In this document: in pieces, positions 12,584 to 20,403 of the stretch | How positions within the stretch are numbered: position 1 is the stretch's first letter | Layout: the number at the start of each line of letters is the position of its first letter | DNA from: Rhizocola hellebori | GTDB lineage: Bacteria; Actinomycetota; Actinomycetes; Mycobacteriales; Micromonosporaceae | DNA: 64,000 nt | Reading direction: 5' to 3' | Assembly: GCF_016862955.1 (NCBI RefSeq) | Contig: NZ_BONY01000047.1 | Coordinates: forward strand, 1-64,000 | Made by a program: the position numbers and the translations under genes | Notes under the pieces: generated by a model | The model's database searches: none | Seen by the model: the letters and a program-made list of their open reading frames with translations, nothing else | Told to the model about the DNA's origin: nothing

Positions 12584-14053
12584 GTGGAGGAGACCGCCGA
12601 CGAGCAGTTCGCGTCGCATCTGGCCTTCATGCGCAGGATCAGCGAAGGAAAGGAGTCCTATCGCGGCGGGAGCGCCTATGAGCAGGCAACCCATTACTAC
12701 CTGGACCATCTGGTTGACTCATGCGCGGACAGCGCACGCGAGCAGCTGCCACCCGAGCGCCCCACAGAGATCGACCTTCTGATATGCATGACCGGTCTGT
12801 CACCGCGGCCGGTAGTGCTGGCATTCAAGATTCTCAGGCCCAAACGGCTCGTGCTGATCACCTCTGACGACGCAGGCGAGAGTATCAACATCATCCACGA
12901 CCACCTGGTGATGGGCGGGCCCTTGCGCGGCGCCGACTTCTCCCACAGCGCGTGTGTAGCCACCAATCCGCTCGACATTTACCGCATCGTGCGGCATGAG
13001 GTAGAGATCGTGGAGCGGCGCCACTCCCGGCCGATCACCGCCTACATTGACATCACGGGCGGCCGCAAAGTCATGGGCGCGAGCGCGGCGCTGGCCGCGT
13101 GGCAACTCAATCTCCGATTGTCCTATGTAGACGGAAAATATGACGGTGGGCTTCGGCAGGCCCTTCCCGGTTCCGATCGCATCCTGCTGCTGGACAATCC
13201 GACCTCGATTTTCGGCGAGCAGGAAATGGAGGTCGCACGGCAGGCGTTCACCAGTGGCAACTTCGAGGTGGCCCGCACTCGCTTCGGTGATCTCGGTGAT
13301 CGGCTGGTTCAGCCTGACCAGCCGCGTGTCATGGAGGCTCTCTCTGCGCTGTACCGGGCGTGGCTCGACCTCGACCGCGAGGCGTTGCCCGAAGCGATCA
13401 AAGGCGTCCAATCGGTCTTGTCGGTGGCACGCCGGGAGCTGGCCGAGGCGGATGTCCGCCGAATCTACGATCAGCTTGCCCACCTCGATGAGCTTGCCCG
13501 AGGCGAGCGGCGGGCGCTGCTGCTCACCTTCAGCCTCCTCGACGATCACTACCGCCGGGTGGGCCGGCACGACTTTGCGGCCCTTTTCTCGTACCGGACG
13601 ATAGAGCTTTGTCTGGCAGCGCATCTGAGCCAGAGCCATGGCGGGTTCGATTGCGGCAGTCCTGATTGGAGCCTCCTTTCAAGTGATCGGCAGGCCCTAC
13701 AGCACTCATACGGACTGGTGGTCAACGGTGTCCGCGAGGACCAGGTCAAGCGGTCGCTTCCACCCCAGGTCGGCCCGTTCGCCGCCGCGGTCCTGCTGAA
13801 CGTGACCGGGGACAAGCTGGCCGCATTGGCTGGCCTTGACGGCGACGTGCACCTTCGTGAGCTGGAAGCGCTCGCCAAGGCGCGCAACAACTCCGTACTG
13901 GCGCATGGCGAGAACTTCATCACCATGGCGCAGTCTGCTGCGCTCAATGCGAAGGCACAGCGCGTGTTGCGGGCCTATTGGCAGTTGCACTATCAGGACG
14001 AGGACCTGGCGGAGTGCAGACGCGCCCTGGCGTTCCTGCGCGGCGGGCAGTAG
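12584..14053 (+). CDS. CARF-HEPN protein (Csm6/Cas02710-like) opening a defence-like operon
   Basis: A 489-aa protein. Residues about 60-200 look like a CARF sensor domain: a beta strand leading into TGLSPRP (70-76), the ITSDD strand, and the diagnostic DITGGRKVMG (156-165) before SYVDGKYD. The C-terminal third is helical and ends in ARNNSVLAHGE, with Arg434 and His441 as an R-x6-H HEPN ribonuclease motif. CARF domains bind cyclic oligoadenylates and HEPN domains cut RNA, as in Csm6 and the TIGR02710 group. GTG at 12584 has GGAGG seven bases upstream. No CRISPR array or cas genes are in the window. Three bases separate it from the helicase gene. Confidence 0.75.
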   Translation: MEETADEQFASHLAFMRRISEGKESYRGGSAYEQATHYYLDHLVDSCADSAREQLPPERPTEIDLLICMTGLSPRPVVLAFKILRPKRLVLITSDDAGESINIIHDHLVMGGPLRGADFSHSACVATNPLDIYRIVRHEVEIVERRHSRPITAYIDITGGRKVMGASAALAAWQLNLRLSYVDGKYDGGLRQALPGSDRILLLDNPTSIFGEQEMEVARQAFTSGNFEVARTRFGDLGDRLVQPDQPRVMEALSALYRAWLDLDREALPEAIKGVQSVLSVARRELAEADVRRIYDQLAHLDELARGERRALLLTFSLLDDHYRRVGRHDFAALFSYRTIELCLAAHLSQSHGGFDCGSPDWSLLSSDRQALQHSYGLVVNGVREDQVKRSLPPQVGPFAAAVLLNVTGDKLAALAGLDGDVHLRELEALAKARNNSVLAHGENFITMAQSAALNAKAQRVLRAYWQLHYQDEDLAECRRALAFLRGGQ

Positions 14054-14056
14054 AGC

Positions 14057-17000
14057 ATGGCGACGAAAACGCCAGTGCGGGAACGGAACCTGACCGCGCC
14101 GTGGATGGAGGAGTTCCGCGCTCAGCTCATCTCGTCGCGGCGCGCCTCCGCCGACCCTTCACTCGACTTCGCCGTCTTCGACCAACTCGATAACAGGCTT
14201 CACAGGGCTGGGCTGACAGTCGACAGGGTTCTGAATGAGCTGCGTCAGGGGATCTTCGGCGCGTGGCTGCTCGACAGCGACTCACCAGATCGGCGCTTCT
14301 ACCAGCTGATGACCCGCAAGCTGGAGGTGCGCCTGCACACCGAGCCGTCCCGCAACCACTGGGGCGACATCACAGTGCTGGACAGGGCCTACCGGCGACG
14401 CGACGCGCCGAAGCCGTCGCAAATGCCTGTCTACCCATCGAATGTGACGCTGCATAACGCAGCCGACACACCGTCCTGCGACCTCGATACCCTCATCGAG
14501 GAGGTGAACTGGCGCCGTTGGCTATTCGAGGCAGAAGAAACCCTGACGACGGTCAGGTTGACGCCACGGCTGCACACCCAGCTTCGAGACGACGTCCGCC
14601 GCCGCTTCGGCTCGCTGCGCACGCTGTTGGAGCTGGCCAAGCAGCGGGCCGAGAAAGGCGACAAGGCAACCGCCGAAGGCACTCTCCTCGACGGCGCGCA
14701 GTGGTTTGGCCGTAACCACAAGTACAGCGACGAGGTGGTGGTGCGGCTCGACAAACCCTCGCCCTTCCAGCTTCAGGAAGACCCGATCCGGCTGGCGATC
14801 TGGCCCACGGGCGACATGGAGAGCAGCGTTGTATTGCAGGCGGCCGACATCGTTGACGAGATTGTGGTATTCAGCCGTTCCAGCCAACATCGTGACTCCG
14901 AAAGACTGCAGGGCTGGGCACGGCCCGGTCTGCGGGTCGTCGTGTCGGAGTCGGGCGAATTCCGGTACAGAAGGCACCTCACGTCGCTCTACCAATTCCT
15001 CGACGAGAAGACCGCGGGAAACTGGACCGCGCTAGCCATCATGCTTTGCCACCCCGAGCAGCTGGCCCACCGAAGGCTAACGGAGATAAGGCAATCCGGA
15101 CGGAAACTCAACCAGCAGCAGCGGCTCGCCGTTGCCGGGGCGCTGGACGCGCCGCACGCCTATTTCGTCCAAGGCCCACCCGGCACCGGTAAGACACAGG
15201 TCATCACCGAGGTCGCCAGCCGCCTGGTTGCCCGCGGCGAGCGCGTGCTGCTGACAGCGCCCACGCACGTCGCGCTCGACGAGGTGCTGCAGCGACTTGC
15301 TGACGAACCCGGCGTGCTGCCGCTGCGCCTCTCCTGGAACGACAAGTATGTCGCGGACGATGTGCAGCGCTTTACCCTCAGTGGCTATGACGCGGTCGTC
15401 TCAGGAACACTACGCATACCCTCAACAAGCAAGCTGCCTCAGTGGAACGAAAGCCTCAGCCAAGCTCAGGCAAGACTTGGAGCAGTCGACGGCTGGCTCG
15501 CCAGCCAGGCTGAGCTTGACAGCGCCGAGAAGGAACTGGCCGCCGCCCGACAGAACGCGATGCAGCGGGCCAAATATCGTCACGATCATATTATGTGGTA
15601 CGAGGTGGAACTCGGCCGGTTGCTGGCATGGATGCGTCACCACAGCGACGAACTCGGGCGCATTGATTTCCAGGAGCGCGAGATCGCAGGCCGGCTAGCC
15701 TTGATCCAGCGTGAGCGTGGCTGGTTCGGCAGATTCCTGGACAGGATAGGTGTCGGCGAGATGGCCCGCCTCGAAGTCCGAGCGCAGCGACTCCAACAGG
15801 TAAAGGCAGCCACCACAGGCCGTTATCAGGATGCCTACCGCCACCGGGCAGAGCAGGAAGCCGCCCGCGACCGGCTGGTCACCGCGGGCCTGGAACAAGC
15901 CCACGCCGACCAGGCCGTCGTTGCGGCGGCCGAGCGAAGGCGGGAAGCGGCGGCCGCGGCACAGCTCCTGGCCACACAGAGCCTTTCCAGGCTAGGCCTA
16001 GGCGAGCTGTTGGCAACAAAGGCGGTGGCGGTCAGGGCACGCCGCGCGATCGAGGCCGAACACGCCGAGCTTGCCGCGCGGATAGCTGTCCAACAGCAGT
16101 GGTTCGAAATCATCGGAGCAGATGGCACCGACGCGGCTTCCGATCTGGCCAAGGCGCAAGCCGTATTGGGTAAGGCCCTTTCGAGCGCAGCGAACCTGAT
16201 TTGCTCCACCACCGCCGGTTTCGGTGGCGCGAAAACCTTCCGGGATTTGGACTATGACACCCTGATCGTTGACGAGGCGAGCAAGGTCACCGCCGCCGAG
16301 TTTCTGATTCCGGCACTGCGAGCTCATCGATGGATCCTCGTCGGCGACGAGAAACAGCTTGCGCCCTATGTGGACGCCGGTGTGGAGCACCATATCCACG
16401 CGATGGCTGCCATCCACCTCAGCGAACGCGAGGCCGGATACGACCGCAACAGCGCCGTGAAGCATCTGAGCGGGCTCTGGCGCGCATTCGAAGATGCTGA
16501 GCAGCACCCGTTTCGCGAGAAGAATGTGGAACAGATAGCGGACCGCCTGGTAGACAAGGGCACCTGGGCTGGAGCTCATCGGCAAATATATGCCGAGCAG
16601 GTCAAGCACCTGCTGGGCAAGGACACCGAGCCGGAGCGACACCTGATGGAGGCGATGCGCGAGCACTTGGTGACAAGCCTCTTTCAGCGTTGCGTGGCAC
16701 ATGTCGACTCACGTACAGGGCCACGGTCGCGCCTGATCGAGCAGCGGCGAATGCCTGCCGAAATCGCCGAGTTGGTCAGAGAGCCGGTATACGGCGGGAA
16801 CTACAAGTCGCCGCCGCCCTCAGATCCCGACTGCCCCCAGCCGTTGCTCACACCATCGTTCAGCGCGCCGCTTGTCTTCCTCGACACGTCAAAACAGGCG
16901 TGGCCATGGGATGACTTGCCTCACGGCACCACCAGCTTCATCAATAATCTGGAAGCTGATTGGGTGGTGGAGGTCTGCAGACGGTGGAACGACGAGCTGG

Positions 17001-17473
17001 GCCAGCTCGGCATACCCGGACGGACAAGCATCAGCGTCTTGGCTTTCTACGGCGCCCAAGCCCGGCTGATCCGCCAGAAGCTGGGGTATCCAAGATATCC
17101 GAGGTTTCCTCACCTCGCCTTCCGGGTCGTCGACTCGATCGACCGCATCCAGGGCCAGCAGAGTGACATCGTCGTCATCTCGTTCTGCCGCACCTTCGGT
17201 AGACCGAAAGACCCCAAAGCCCCACCGCGCAAGGGGACGGCCATACCCACACCAGGCTGGGCGCCATGGCTGCAAAACATCAACCGCCTCAATGTCGCGT
17301 GCACCCGGGCCTGCCGCTCGCTTGTGCTGGTGGGGCATGGCCCAACCTTGCGGGCGTTGCGCGGTACCCCCAAAGCTGAGCAATTCTTCACGAACATGTT
17401 CGCGCTAGAACAGCGTGGGGTGCTGGAAATTAACATCGACTGGGCCACCGCGGCCGCCCGGAAAAAGTCGTGA
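14057..17473 (+). CDS. UPF1-like superfamily 1 helicase with coiled-coil insert
   Basis: A 1138-aa protein of the COG1112/AAA_11-AAA_12 type. After a 350-residue N-terminal region of unknown fold comes the Q motif (LNQQQRLAVAGAL), Walker A GPPGTGKT (373-380) and motif Ia (LLTAPTHVALDEVL). A long charged helical insert (about 470-700) is probably a coiled coil. Then CSTTAGFGG, Walker B VDEAS (about 739-742) and GDEKQL follow. The C-terminal RecA domain has DSIDRIQGQQSDIVVISF and LNVACTRACRSLVLVG. These helicases unwind RNA or DNA with ATP. It is tightly linked to the CARF-HEPN gene upstream and overlaps the next gene by GTGA. Confidence 0.9.
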   Translation: MATKTPVRERNLTAPWMEEFRAQLISSRRASADPSLDFAVFDQLDNRLHRAGLTVDRVLNELRQGIFGAWLLDSDSPDRRFYQLMTRKLEVRLHTEPSRNHWGDITVLDRAYRRRDAPKPSQMPVYPSNVTLHNAADTPSCDLDTLIEEVNWRRWLFEAEETLTTVRLTPRLHTQLRDDVRRRFGSLRTLLELAKQRAEKGDKATAEGTLLDGAQWFGRNHKYSDEVVVRLDKPSPFQLQEDPIRLAIWPTGDMESSVVLQAADIVDEIVVFSRSSQHRDSERLQGWARPGLRVVVSESGEFRYRRHLTSLYQFLDEKTAGNWTALAIMLCHPEQLAHRRLTEIRQSGRKLNQQQRLAVAGALDAPHAYFVQGPPGTGKTQVITEVASRLVARGERVLLTAPTHVALDEVLQRLADEPGVLPLRLSWNDKYVADDVQRFTLSGYDAVVSGTLRIPSTSKLPQWNESLSQAQARLGAVDGWLASQAELDSAEKELAAARQNAMQRAKYRHDHIMWYEVELGRLLAWMRHHSDELGRIDFQEREIAGRLALIQRERGWFGRFLDRIGVGEMARLEVRAQRLQQVKAATTGRYQDAYRHRAEQEAARDRLVTAGLEQAHADQAVVAAAERRREAAAAAQLLATQSLSRLGLGELLATKAVAVRARRAIEAEHAELAARIAVQQQWFEIIGADGTDAASDLAKAQAVLGKALSSAANLICSTTAGFGGAKTFRDLDYDTLIVDEASKVTAAEFLIPALRAHRWILVGDEKQLAPYVDAGVEHHIHAMAAIHLSEREAGYDRNSAVKHLSGLWRAFEDAEQHPFREKNVEQIADRLVDKGTWAGAHRQIYAEQVKHLLGKDTEPERHLMEAMREHLVTSLFQRCVAHVDSRTGPRSRLIEQRRMPAEIAELVREPVYGGNYKSPPPSDPDCPQPLLTPSFSAPLVFLDTSKQAWPWDDLPHGTTSFINNLEADWVVEVCRRWNDELGQLGIPGRTSISVLAFYGAQARLIRQKLGYPRYPRFPHLAFRVVDSIDRIQGQQSDIVVISFCRTFGRPKDPKAPPRKGTAIPTPGWAPWLQNINRLNVACTRACRSLVLVGHGPTLRALRGTPKAEQFFTNMFALEQRGVLEINIDWATAAARKKS

Positions 17474-18696
17474 CCACCTACCGCCGCGCGGAAAACGCGC
17501 CGCCGACCGACCGCCCAACCCTTCATATCACGTCGGCAAGTCTGGCCGTGCTCTGGTGGCGTGACGTGAGGATCACCTTCACTGAGCCCATTGAACTCAA
17601 CGAGCTCGACGAATTCGCCGTCGCCGCCGTCACCCGGCTGGGAAGCCTGAGCGCGCAAGACTTCGAGGAGTTCACCGGTCTTCCCCCACTCATCTTCAAC
17701 GGCCTTGCCCGCCGGCTGCACAGCTTGGGTCTGCTCGATTGGCGCGACGGCACCCTACGCCCGACGGCAGCCGAAGACCCGTCGGAGATGCCGCGCAAGG
17801 CCGCCAAGACCACCACCGCCTCTGTCGACCTTGTTTATCTCCCCGGTACCGATGAGCTTCTCGTCGCGCACGAGGGTCTGGCTGTTTGGGAAAGGGCTGG
17901 GCTGCAACCGATCGGCGCGTCGCCGTTACCGGAGACGCTTCACCGCACGACCTTCCGAAACTTTATCTCCGCACGGGTCAGGCAGGGCCGGGTCGCGGGC
18001 CTACCGGCCAACGCCATCGAGCTGACGGAAGGCGACGACGAGCCGCTGACCGCCATGGTGGGCGCCCATCCGGAGCCTCCGGTGCCGGTGTGCCCAGTTT
18101 TCCTGTGCGCGGCGACGCTTGTGCTCGGCGAGGGCCGCAGTCAGGCCCTTTTGGACGCATCAGAGAACCCACGTAAGAAGTCGAAGAAGGCCAACCGTGT
18201 CACGATCGACGTGAGCGATGCCAAGGGACTCATAGGCCGCTGGGCGGGGGCAGTCACCGAACTGACCGGAAAGCCTTCCCTCGTCGAGGAGGCGATGCGC
18301 TCGCTTGGCCTTGCCGAGCCGCCTTGGCCGTCGCTTGTCCAGGACCACTCCGGTGCGTGGCGGCTCTCCATCGACGGGCGGCATGCGCAAACCCTCTCTC
18401 GCGAAGGTTTGCTCACCTTGCCAATCGGGCTTGAGATCTGCGAGCCAGACTTCAATGTCACGATGGCCCTTGTCCTGGAACCCGTCGACGACGAGGCGCG
18501 GCAGCTGATCCGGCTCGACCGAGTGCTGCAGGAGACCCTCCAGCGCTATGGTGCAGGCGACAGCGCGATCGGCAAGCATCATGCGGGCATCCGGGAGGTG
18601 GGCGGAATCGCCCGTCTCATGTCGCGGGCATGGCAATTGAGGTTCTACTCGCTGGTGTACCAAGCAAAAGAAAGCGAACACTTCGACTATGCCTGA
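17470..18696 (+). CDS. Unknown protein between helicase and PLD genes
   Basis: A 408-aa protein I do not recognise. The N-terminal part (about 35-95) could be a winged-helix domain (ELDEFAVAAVTRLGSLSAQDFEEF, then GLARRLHSLGLLDWRDGTLRPT). The middle has a beta-rich segment (ASVDLVYLPGTDELLVAHEGLAVWE). A basic stretch (NPRKKSKKANRVTI) lies near residue 235. The C-terminal part has alternating beta strands and a helical end. No signal peptide, membrane helix or catalytic motif is visible. GTGA overlap with the helicase and an 8-bp overlap with the PLD gene make it an integral component, perhaps an adaptor or nucleic-acid-binding subunit. Confidence 0.75.
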   Translation: MTTYRRAENAPPTDRPTLHITSASLAVLWWRDVRITFTEPIELNELDEFAVAAVTRLGSLSAQDFEEFTGLPPLIFNGLARRLHSLGLLDWRDGTLRPTAAEDPSEMPRKAAKTTTASVDLVYLPGTDELLVAHEGLAVWERAGLQPIGASPLPETLHRTTFRNFISARVRQGRVAGLPANAIELTEGDDEPLTAMVGAHPEPPVPVCPVFLCAATLVLGEGRSQALLDASENPRKKSKKANRVTIDVSDAKGLIGRWAGAVTELTGKPSLVEEAMRSLGLAEPPWPSLVQDHSGAWRLSIDGRHAQTLSREGLLTLPIGLEICEPDFNVTMALVLEPVDDEARQLIRLDRVLQETLQRYGAGDSAIGKHHAGIREVGGIARLMSRAWQLRFYSLVYQAKESEHFDYA

Positions 18697-20251
18697 TCCG
18701 CGCGCTATTGATCTCAGCGAGACCCGATCGGAGGAGGGTTACTTCCTGCTTCGAGAGCATGTCGAACGCCCTTTCCACCATCGAGCCGATGACAGCGACG
18801 GATGGCGCTTCTGCTGCACCTATCGGGATTCCGCGCCCACGCTGCGCGATGCCGTCTTCGAGCTCATCCGCAATGCCAAGCAGAAAGTCTTCATCACCAG
18901 TTTCATCGTCGGTGACGATGAACTGATCGAGTTGCTGGCACAGACCGCCCGTCGCCTACTCGGCGGTGTATACGTCATCAGCGGGCTCACCGAAACGAGC
19001 CTTCAGCGCGGCCTTGCCGAAATCGCGGATCGCGAGGACATAAGCCAGAAGGTCGAGGCGGAGAAAAAGAGGTTCATCTCGCTCACCAACCAGGGTGTCG
19101 CGGTCAGAGGCCACGAGAACTGCCACGCGAAGTTCCTCGTCGTGGATGACGCGGTGGCCTGGGTGGGCAGCGCCAACCTGGAGACGCGGGCATTCACCCG
19201 GGTGGGAGAGGTCGGCGTCGTCCTCAACCACCAGCCTTCGGTCTCCCGGCTAGCGCGGCTCTTTGCCCGCATGTGGCTGACAGATTGCAAATATGAGCTT
19301 CCAGCCTTTGGCGACGGGTACCGAGTGGCCGTGCGCAAGGAGTTTCCGCAGATCCGTTTCAAGGTGGCCGATCCAGAGCTCGATGGCGAGGCGGCGCTCG
19401 TCTGGACAGACGATCTCGACACACCCAGCCGAGGCGATGCCACCGATCCCCGCCGCGCGAGCCTGCTGCACAGCGTCCAGGACGTGATAGATCGTGCCCG
19501 GCGGCGTCTGGTGCTCGCCAGCTTCAACCTCAACCGCATGCAGGAGAACCCACAACTAGTTCTGGATCTGGTGACCGCGGCGGTCGCCCGCGGCGTCAAA
19601 GTCGAGCTGCTGGTACGCGCGCTCAACGACCGCGACCGCCACCGGCGTGATGCCGGTCTTTTCCACGATATGGGAGTCGAGGTTCTCGCCGACGACTCCA
19701 ACCATGCCAAAGCCGCAATCGCCGATGACCAACACGGCGTGCTGTTCTCCGCCAACTTTGACGGCGATCACGGCCTGCTCGCGGGCACCGGCATCGAAGT
19801 GGGCACCCGCCTCGATGGAACACCGGCGATGGCCGACCTGACCGCCTACTTCCAGCACGCACTCAGCTGCGCGACGCGTACTTACACGCCTCAGCCGACC
19901 GCGCATCAGCTCGCTCGCGGGCTCTCCGTGATGCCACCGTGGCCGCTGGACGCCGAGATCGGCATCGAATGCGACTGGCAGGCATGGCTGCAATTTCACC
20001 AGAGCGCCTGCCAGCGACCGGTAACCTGGGTGCGGGGCAAGGCCAAGTCCATCGAGCTCGCGGCGGGTGATCGCAGTTTTCTATTGCGCCCCAACGGTTC
20101 TTCCTATCAGCTGTTGCCCGAATCGACGCCCGGCGGAGGCGACGCCATTATGCGACTGGTCCGCGAGGCGCAACGAGGAGGTGGCCGATTACAGGATCGG
20201 GGTGTCTGTACGGCTGTTTTCCGCTACACGGGAATTCATTCACCTAGGTAA
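18689..20251 (+). CDS. Phospholipase D-superfamily protein with two HKD motifs
   Basis: A 520-aa protein. HKD motif 1 is CHAKFLVVDDAVAWVGSAN (His146, Lys148, Asp153, then GSAN). Motif 2 is NHAKAAIADDQHGVLFSAN (His339, Lys341, Asp346). Both sets of residues are intact, so an active phosphodiesterase, probably a nuclease, is expected. No signal peptide is present. About 110 residues after the second domain form an extra C-terminal module. It is the last large gene of the four-gene operon and overlaps the preceding stop by eight bases. A helicase with a PLD protein recalls Mokosh and DISARM, but the other partners differ. Confidence 0.85.
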   Translation: MPDPRAIDLSETRSEEGYFLLREHVERPFHHRADDSDGWRFCCTYRDSAPTLRDAVFELIRNAKQKVFITSFIVGDDELIELLAQTARRLLGGVYVISGLTETSLQRGLAEIADREDISQKVEAEKKRFISLTNQGVAVRGHENCHAKFLVVDDAVAWVGSANLETRAFTRVGEVGVVLNHQPSVSRLARLFARMWLTDCKYELPAFGDGYRVAVRKEFPQIRFKVADPELDGEAALVWTDDLDTPSRGDATDPRRASLLHSVQDVIDRARRRLVLASFNLNRMQENPQLVLDLVTAAVARGVKVELLVRALNDRDRHRRDAGLFHDMGVEVLADDSNHAKAAIADDQHGVLFSANFDGDHGLLAGTGIEVGTRLDGTPAMADLTAYFQHALSCATRTYTPQPTAHQLARGLSVMPPWPLDAEIGIECDWQAWLQFHQSACQRPVTWVRGKAKSIELAAGDRSFLLRPNGSSYQLLPESTPGGGDAIMRLVREAQRGGGRLQDRGVCTAVFRYTGIHSPR

Positions 20252-20277
20252 CCTGTCAACAGACACCGGAGGGATCG

Positions 20278-20403
20278 ATGAGTGACGCTTTCGAACAGTC
20301 GCTATCCGACCTGCGCAACACATTGGGGTCCGCTGGGGTATTCACAACAGCCGAGTTTCAAATCCGACATCCAGCCCTTGCGCGGCAATCGATCACCATC
20401 TAA
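20278..20403 (+). CDS. 41-aa small protein at the end of the CARF-helicase-PLD operon
   Basis: ATG at 20278 is preceded by GGAGGG (20268-20273) at ideal spacing, 26 bases after the PLD stop. It encodes a 41-residue soluble peptide beginning MSDAFEQSLSDLRNTLGSAG and ending RQSITI, helical in appearance. No homologue is recognised. It could be a fifth small operon member or the remnant of a longer gene cut short by the TAA at 20401. Confidence 0.45.
   Translation: MSDAFEQSLSDLRNTLGSAGVFTTAEFQIRHPALARQSITI

What the first reader, a model, noticed from the sequence alone, without database searches (positions are those of the whole stretch)
12584..20403. Candidate new antiphage system: CARF-HEPN, UPF1-like helicase, unknown subunit and double-HKD PLD protein in one operon
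Four genes follow each other with a 3-bp gap, a GTGA overlap and an 8-bp overlap, so they must be expressed together. The first carries CARF-like TGLSPRP and DITGGRKVMG motifs and a C-terminal R-x6-H HEPN motif. The second is a COG1112-type helicase, the fourth has two intact HKD motifs. Helicase plus PLD is known from Mokosh and DISARM, and CARF-HEPN from type III CRISPR accessory proteins, but I know of no described system joining them with this third protein. The neighbourhood (DprA-PRTase, polymorphic toxins) is conflict-rich. A working model is a cyclic-oligonucleotide-gated RNase combined with a helicase-nuclease sensor.
Basis: partly seen in the sequence, partly recalled or inferred. 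Interest (0 to 1): 0.92.

Follow-up and report, generated by a model that had tools for sequence, protein, structure and literature searches.

The report
CARF RNase joined to helicase operon
Four coupled genes found across many actinobacteria join a CRISPR-type, signal-gated RNA-cutting enzyme to a helicase, a winged-helix protein and a second nuclease-like enzyme, mostly in genomes where none of the three signal-making enzyme families that we looked for was found.

Summary
Four genes (12584-20251, +) are coupled exactly as described. A is a Csm6-type CARF-6H-HEPN ribonuclease, B a UPF1-like helicase, C a winged helix plus an unrecognised part, D a PLD protein with two HKD motifs. The order A-B-C-D recurs in 26 distinct genomes (window included), mostly with 4- and 8-base overlaps. 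A related cassette, helicase / C-position gene / PLD / CARF, occurs in 11 loci, ten from Bacteroidota; eight add a Card1-like gene. No NCBIfam model reaches its cut-off for any of the four; PADLOC already catalogues A.

B-C-D resembles the helicase / wHTH-nuclease (cnuHE) half of CoCoNuTs, without McrBC. In one Catellatospora genome A follows a helicase / wHTH / McrB-like / McrC-like operon.

Most surprising: the main cA4-binding positions of T. thermophilus Csm6 and its HEPN site are kept, yet 0 of 29 carriers have Cas10 over cut-off and 26 of 29 have no Cas10, SMODS or mCpol. In one Clostridiaceae contig a Cas10-like gene accompanies helicase and C-position genes, and no PLD is found. Best reading: a new cnuHE-like defence variant with a CARF-HEPN effector whose activator is unknown and may come from the operon itself. 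Anti-phage function is inferred.

The parts
12584..14053 (+). A: CARF-6H-HEPN ribonuclease of the Csm6 type (489 aa, GTG start)
   Evidence: PADLOC CARF1--CARF_HEPN PDLC01819 E 1e-176; Pfam Csm6 HEPN 34 bits, cut-off 27, Csm6 6H below cut-off; TIGR02710 83.2 bits, cut-off 83.9; PDB T. thermophilus Csm6 1.1e-33 by profile; model pLDDT 90.6, Foldseek E 3.4e-20, VIA Z 26.8, rmsd 5.7 over 439 residues
12776..13195 (+). CARF domain of A (about residues 65-204); S94, T158, G160, K162, Y181 the same in 27 of 27 aligned
   Evidence: roles of the matching TtCsm6 positions from PMC10897365, passages
13508..13990 (+). HEPN domain of A (about residues 309-469); R434, N435, H441 the same in 27 of 27 aligned
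14057..17473 (+). B: SF1 UPF1/IGHMBP2-like helicase (1138 aa), 362 residues from the Walker A start (373) to the Walker B pattern (735)
   Evidence: AAA_11 3.2e-35, AAA_12 1.5e-24; TIGR00376 144.8 bits, cut-off 348.9; MkoA 8.4e-87; Walker spacing
17470..18696 (+). C: winged-helix protein with an unrecognised second part (408 aa)
   Evidence: no NCBIfam or PADLOC match, one Pfam match at E 0.2; model pLDDT 84.1; winged helix at 42-108, VIA Z up to 9.7, rmsd 2.0 over 66 residues (Foldseek list)
18689..20251 (+). D: PLD-superfamily protein with two HKD motifs (520 aa)
   Evidence: PLDc_2 4.5e-27; DrmC 2.6e-21 and MkoB 7.8e-16; DrmC_I 100.7 bits, cut-off 133; both HKD motifs kept in 5 of 5 aligned

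Best explanation
A-B-C-D is a four-subunit immune-type operon: a cnuHE-like helicase / wHTH / nuclease module (B, C, D) that works without McrBC and carries a Csm6-type CARF-HEPN RNase (A) as its ligand-gated effector. Shown here: gene content, order, coupling, conservation, catalytic motifs, CARF pocket positions. Inferred: B loads on and moves along foreign or aberrant nucleic acid, perhaps RNA (the one Bacteroidota helicase scanned, L123, carries S1 RNA-binding domains); C couples B to D; D cuts the nucleic acid. Also inferred: A's CARF dimer binds an oligonucleotide messenger produced during the attack, its HEPN site opens, and general RNA cleavage stops growth. The messenger is unlikely to come from Cas10 in these genomes; where it comes from is the open step.
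For: Order in 26 distinct genomes; 4-base B-C overlap in 21 of 25 and 8-base C-D overlap in 18 of 25 fetched genomes (starts chosen by script). A is Csm6-like along its length. Of the TtCsm6 positions mapped, K137, T133, G135, Y161 and the HEPN R, N, H are kept in 27 of 27, T81 is serine in 27 of 27 (roles in PMC10897365, passages). A second arrangement, helicase / C-position gene / PLD / CARF, in 11 loci. A sits behind a helicase / wHTH / AAA_5 / DUF2357-like operon in L092. CoCoNuT-type helicases are described with a downstream wHTH-nuclease gene, in III-C with two PLD domains (PMC11090510, passages). Of 28 full-length carriers in 350 family genomes, 18 have A-B-C-D (window included), 1 has D-C-B on the opposite strand, 3 have A-D.
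Against: No phage test. 4 of 28 carriers have A without B, C or D and 2 have A with remnants, so A can stand without them. C shows no sequence match to the L092 wHTH protein and matches the Bacteroidota C-position proteins by profile over 96 columns only, probability 64. TtCsm6 T59 and N164 positions are not kept, so ligand handling may differ. By pattern only 2 of 11 PLD proteins of the second arrangement show both HKD motifs, 8 show the first only, 1 neither. The target of B and D is not tested.
Confidence: 0.6

Rival explanations
1. The operon is a Mokosh or DISARM derivative, and A is a passenger picked up in a defence island.
For: B scores 8.4e-87 to MkoA, D 7.8e-16 to MkoB and 2.6e-21 to DrmC; A stands without B, C or D in 4 of 28 carriers.
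Against: No kinase family in B by Pfam at E up to 1 and the best MkoA profile matches only from position 324; D is below the DrmC_I cut-off; A is first in the operon in 26 genomes, and a CARF gene follows the PLD gene in a second lineage.
Confidence: 0.15
2. A is a stray type III CRISPR effector acting in trans with Cas10 elsewhere in the genome.
For: A is Csm6-like in sequence and fold; L110 (28 percent identity) has neighbours that look like Cas10, Csm3 and Csm4 by eye.
Against: No Cas10 palm match over cut-off in 29 of 29 carriers, 2 with matches below it, nor in 14 of 14 further genomes with the cassette or its relative (completeness unknown); 5 of 14 control genomes ring.
Confidence: 0.05
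3. A is gated by linear nucleic-acid fragments, such as ends with 2',3'-cyclic phosphate, released when a partner nuclease or the phage cuts RNA, as proposed for RtcR-like CARF proteins, so no cyclase is needed.
For: 26 of 29 carriers have none of Cas10 over cut-off, SMODS and mCpol; genes beside A in other loci are of restriction type: GmrSD in L065, McrB-like and DUF2357-like in L074/L092; RtcR idea in PMC11090510, passages.
Against: The pocket keeps cA4-binding positions, which fits a cyclic ligand as well; nothing tested.
Confidence: 0.2
4. The operon is not immune but serves RNA quality control or RNA repair.
For: UPF1-like helicases and S1 domains act in RNA turnover (family knowledge; S1 in L123).
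Against: Patchy presence: full-length A in 28 of 350 family genomes and only the own genome in a class sample of 394; decayed copies; defence-type genes nearby in several loci.
Confidence: 0.1

Closest known systems
CoCoNuT types II and III (CnuH-CnuE)
   Same: UPF1-like helicase with a long stretch between Walker A and B, a wHTH protein and a nuclease downstream; III-C uses two PLD domains (PMC11090510, passages)
   Different: no McrB or McrC gene in A-B-C-D; wHTH (C) and PLD (D) are separate genes; the HEPN is on a CARF protein. L092, with McrB-like and McrC-like genes before A, stands between the two
Csm6 of T. thermophilus (cA4-activated)
   Same: CARF-6H-HEPN fold along the length; K137, T133, G135, Y161, R415, N416, H422 positions kept, T81 as serine
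   Different: no Cas10 over cut-off in carriers; T59 and N164 positions not kept
Mokosh type I (MkoA, MkoB)
   Same: UPF1-like helicase plus PLD protein; strong MkoA score
   Different: no kinase found in B (kinase in MkoA is recalled), extra C gene and CARF-HEPN gene
DISARM DrmC
   Same: PLD family of D
   Different: below the DrmC_I cut-off; no DrmA/DrmB-type match among A-D
Card1/Can2-type CARF-PDDEXK
   Same: follows the small CARF gene in the L123 cassette (PDLC01890 4.8e-102, Card1_endonuc 3.5e-13)
   Different: there without Cas10 over cut-off (0 of 10 genomes); not part of the actinobacterial cassette

Membership tests
Csm6 (CARF-HEPN) | CARF, 6H and HEPN domains with the R-x4-6-H motif | tested here: met
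Csm6 (CARF-HEPN) | a type III Cas10 in the same genome | tested here: not met
   0 of 29 carriers over cut-off, 2 of 29 with a match below it; 5 of 14 controls ring
CoCoNuT II/III | UPF1-like SF1 helicase | tested here: met
CoCoNuT II/III | large helical insertion after Walker A | tested here: inconclusive
   only length measured: 362 residues Walker A to Walker B pattern in the window, 201 in L123
CoCoNuT II/III | wHTH protein fused to an effector nuclease downstream of the helicase | tested here: inconclusive
   winged helix in C by fold, PLD in the next gene D, so split; no match of C to the L092 wHTH protein
CoCoNuT II/III | McrB-like GTPase and McrC (CnuB, CnuC) | tested here: not met
   no match among A-D, the HEAT and DprA genes and 10 further window proteins; found beside A in L074/L092 only among loci scanned
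Mokosh | UPF1-like helicase (MkoA) | tested here: met
   PDLC03920 8.4e-87
Mokosh | kinase domain in MkoA (recalled feature) | tested here: not met
   no kinase family in B at E up to 1
DISARM | DrmC at the NCBIfam cut-off | tested here: not met
   100.7 bits, cut-off 133
DISARM | DrmA/DrmB-type proteins in the operon (recalled feature) | tested here: not met
   no such match among A-D in the lists shown
CBASS | CD-NTase encoded with the effector | tested here: not met
   none among A-D; SMODS in 2 of 29 carrier genomes; other CD-NTase families not searched
mCpol systems | minimal CRISPR polymerase with the effector | tested here: not met
   none among A-D; 1 of 29 carrier genomes
any anti-phage system | protects against phage | not testable with these tools
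   needs a bench test

The most novel reading that the evidence does not exclude
The operon is a Cas10-free oligonucleotide-signalling system in which B-C-D itself makes the ligand of the CARF-HEPN protein. Either the PLD enzyme, whose family works through a phospho-histidine intermediate and can transfer as well as hydrolyse (recalled), releases or circularises short oligonucleotides from nucleic acid that the helicase feeds it, or its cut ends are the signal. It would be a further way to drive CARF effectors besides Cas10 and known cyclases. L141, where a Cas10-like gene accompanies the helicase and C-position genes and no PLD is found, fits this but is one case.
Probability: 0.22. Interest if true: 0.93.

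Novelty: new variant of a known kind. Interest (0 to 1): 0.76.

Why it matters
Csm6-type CARF-HEPN enzymes are known as receptors for oligoadenylates made by Cas10. Here such a receptor, with the main binding positions kept, is tied to a helicase / wHTH / PLD operon in 26 genomes, and the 29 carriers of A that were searched (19 of them with the full cassette) have no Cas10 over cut-off. That makes a clean question testable: what activates a CARF protein when no known cyclase is there? It also links type III CRISPR effectors, CoCoNuT/Mokosh helicases and PLD nucleases through genomes in which one effector stands beside different partners.

Tried and rejected
Chance neighbours: rejected by 26 genomes with the same order and 0 of 24 distant CARF loci with B, C or D.

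Type III CRISPR in trans: Cas10 palm searched in the own genome, 29 carriers and 16 of 17 further genomes named (L122 not held). Over cut-off only in G792 (the L141 operon itself) and G807 (Gemmataceae, L106, A without B-C-D). The own-genome match is below cut-off, in a 472-aa protein that looked by eye like a GAF protein; G625 also has a match below cut-off. One of the five control genomes that ring is E. coli, so the model is permissive.

CBASS or mCpol as ligand source: SMODS in 2 of 29, the own genome with three matches being one of them, mCpol in 1 of 29. The own genome therefore does have candidate CD-NTases elsewhere. SMODS does not cover every CD-NTase family.

C as a cyclase: only the winged helix at 42-108 was recognised. 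The other parts were barely tested, so this is not excluded. In the VIA-align list nearly every row spans only that winged helix.

The 41-codon ORF after D: nothing. First genome-contig scan with one protein: no relative. Viral contigs: none. Phage records with D: none. Plasmids with A: 4 records of Thermus and Meiothermus at 24.6-28.3 percent. Search for the L141 C-position protein: 2 of 245 genomes, one of them L141's own.

Literature: eight searches, listings only, plus passages of PMC4012209, PMC3710099, PMC12669027, PMC11090510, PMC12458937, PMC12926258 and PMC10897365. None of what I saw joins these four genes. Makarova et al. 2020 is not held, so the operon may be noted there.
Full report
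WHAT IS THERE. Four ORFs on the + strand: A 12584-14053, B 14057-17473, C 17470-18696, D 18689-20251. The reported end, 20403, lies beyond D; the extra ORF of 41 codons has no convincing relative in the fetched loci. Third-position GC of the four genes (0.74-0.78) is lower than that of four other window genes (0.80-0.84) and close to the DprA gene and its neighbour downstream (0.74, 0.72). This fits import but does not prove it.

WHAT THE PROTEINS ARE. A: PADLOC CARF1--CARF_HEPN model PDLC01819 at 1e-176, Pfam Csm6 HEPN over its cut-off, TIGR02710 just under it, 83.2 of 83.9 bits. A profile of 27 sequences finds T. thermophilus Csm6 in the PDB at 1.1e-33. The model (pLDDT 90.6, pTM 0.63) matches TtCsm6 with cA4, 8jh1, at Foldseek 3.4e-20 and VIA Z 26.8, rmsd 5.7 over 439 residues. 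In TtCsm6, K137 and T81 carry cA4 binding, Y161 and N164 cleavage, T59 and S60 both, R415/N416/H422 the RNase site (PMC10897365, passages). I carried these positions over by hand from the HMM alignment. K137, T133, G135, Y161, R415, N416 and H422 are the same residue in 27 of 27 proteins, T81 is serine in 27 of 27, S60 is kept in 23, R172 in 23; T59 is never threonine and N164 is asparagine in only 4 of 27. So the binding pocket and RNase site look intact while positions used for ring cleavage differ. B: UPF1/IGHMBP2-type helicase, AAA_11 and AAA_12, MkoA 8.4e-87, no kinase found, 362 residues between the Walker A and B patterns. C: no NCBIfam or PADLOC family, one Pfam match at E 0.2; model pLDDT 84.1; winged helix at 42-108, the rest unrecognised and barely tested. 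D: two HKD motifs, nearest DrmC and MkoB models, below the DrmC_I cut-off.

CONSERVATION. Of 151 relatives (own genome included) 6 match A, one of them a fragment. In a class sample of 394 genomes 15 match, but only the own genome with the full protein. In 350 genomes of the family 31 match, 28 of them full-length. Of these 28: 18 have A-B-C-D in order on one strand (window included), 1 has D-C-B on the opposite strand (L077), 3 have A-D only (Glycomyces, L076, L078, L079), 2 have A with remnants (L071, L075), 4 have A without B, C or D (L065, L066, L073, L074). The other three matches are fragments (G056, G076, G748). Counting both sets, 34 loci have the four genes in order. Named ones include Micromonospora, Actinoplanes, Asanoa, Catellatospora, Allorhizocola, Nonomuraea, Actinomadura, Saccharothrix and Sinosporangium. 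The 4-base B-C overlap is seen in 21 and the 8-base C-D overlap in 18 of the 25 (starts were chosen by script, so single values are approximate). In two genomes (L010, L057/L100) B is broken.

A SECOND ARRANGEMENT. In ten Bacteroidota loci and one Erysipelotrichaceae locus the order is helicase, a 409-454-aa gene, PLD, CARF. The N-terminal part of the second gene aligns by profile with C's winged helix over 96 columns, probability 64, E 6.4e-5. In eight of the eleven a 357-370-aa gene follows the CARF gene; it was scanned only in L123, where it is a Card1-like CARF-PDDEXK protein. L123's helicase carries S1 domains and its small CARF protein falls in the CARF1 group like A. The helicase and PLD genes match B and D by HMM. 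By pattern 2 of 11 PLD proteins show both HKD motifs, 8 the first only, 1 neither (L120 is cut by a masked stretch). On the CARF tree the eleven form one supported group, and the actinobacterial proteins another (with L106 and L110 on long branches); A-B-C-D carriers are not one clade within it. In contrast, 0 of 24 further CARF loci had B, C or D in the fetched flanks.

WHO MAKES THE SIGNAL. Cas10 palm: 0 of 29 actinobacterial carriers over cut-off, 2 below it; 5 of 14 control genomes ring, E. coli among them. 0 of 14 further genomes with the cassette or its relative, completeness unknown. SMODS: 2 of 29, the own genome being one. mCpol: 1 of 29. So 26 of 29 carriers have none of the three, but the window's own genome does have SMODS proteins elsewhere. 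Other CD-NTase families were not searched. L141, a Clostridiaceae contig, is the telling exception: a CARF1-HEPN gene, a Cas10-like gene with palm2 (77 bits, cut-off 27) and GGDD, a Csm4-like gene (1e-5), a helicase, a gene in the C position and a CARF2-HEPN-Csx20 gene, with no D match. It is a single metagenome contig, and calling its gene C-like rests on position and length.

PARTNERS. In Catellatospora methionotrophica (L092, same contig as L074) A follows a UPF1-like helicase, a protein with a wHTH match just under cut-off, an AAA_5 McrB-like gene and a DUF2357-like gene under its cut-off. L073 looks similar for the last genes by eye. L065 has a GmrSD-type gene upstream of A and L066 the same by N-terminus, with a DUF1643-like gene under cut-off. 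Recurrent neighbours of the cassette are a HerA module (7 of 29 loci by clustering; 6 by direct search) and a DprA pair (3 of 29, the window among them). So A stands beside several restriction-like partners.

READING. CoCoNuT helicases (CnuH) are described with a large helical insertion after Walker A, and the wider family with a downstream gene of an elongated wHTH fused to nucleases, in type III-C two PLD domains (PMC11090510, passages). B-C-D looks like that pair with wHTH and PLD as separate genes, and lacks the McrBC half that defines CoCoNuTs. I therefore call it a cnuHE-like variant with a CARF-HEPN effector, not a CoCoNuT. It resembles Mokosh in helicase and PLD, but no kinase was found. 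Steps: intact motifs and conserved operon (shown); helicase as sensor, C as coupler, D as cutter (inferred from family knowledge); A as abortive RNase gated by an oligonucleotide (inferred from the pocket); source of that oligonucleotide (open). Defence is inferred from patchiness, decay and neighbours, not shown.

NOVELTY. No NCBIfam cut-off is reached by any of the four. PADLOC has a model for A, so that protein family is catalogued. No paper that I saw joins the four genes; Makarova et al. 2020 could not be read.

Noticed in passing
L141:3365-12629: Clostridiaceae contig with a Cas10-like gene (GGDD), a Csm4-like gene, UPF1-like helicase, C-position gene and two CARF-HEPN genes; no Cas7-type gene was noticed, though none was searched for by model. 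Possibly a type III derivative in which a helicase replaces the guide complex.
   Followed up: partly
L123:1-11592: Mariniflexile operon: helicase with S1 domains, C-position gene, PLD, small CARF, Card1-like gene, preceded by two genes that look like PglZ- and BrxL-type proteins (by eye, not scanned).
   Followed up: partly
L092:602-11413: Helicase, wHTH-like, McrB-like, McrC-like and CARF-HEPN genes in a row in Catellatospora methionotrophica: a CoCoNuT-like operon with a relative of the window's effector.
   Followed up: partly
   Followed up: partly
L007, L057, L059, L075, L076, L078, L079: A module of a 209-305-aa gene and a HerA/mad8-like ATPase recurs near the cassette; in the three Glycomyces A-D loci a 375-397-aa gene (no Pfam family in the one scanned, L078) also lies just before A.
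   Followed up: partly
L071:5222-7258: A intact, but a short piece of B is followed at once by the tail of D, as after a deletion inside the operon.
   Followed up: no
L157:8405-12688: A relative (33 percent) of the L141 C-position protein next to a 1010-aa frame in another genome, with no CARF gene noticed nearby; the frame was not scanned.
   Followed up: no
G365, G487, G479 and others: In one family of the class, long frames (about 720-930 aa) match the CARF part of A weakly.
   Followed up: no
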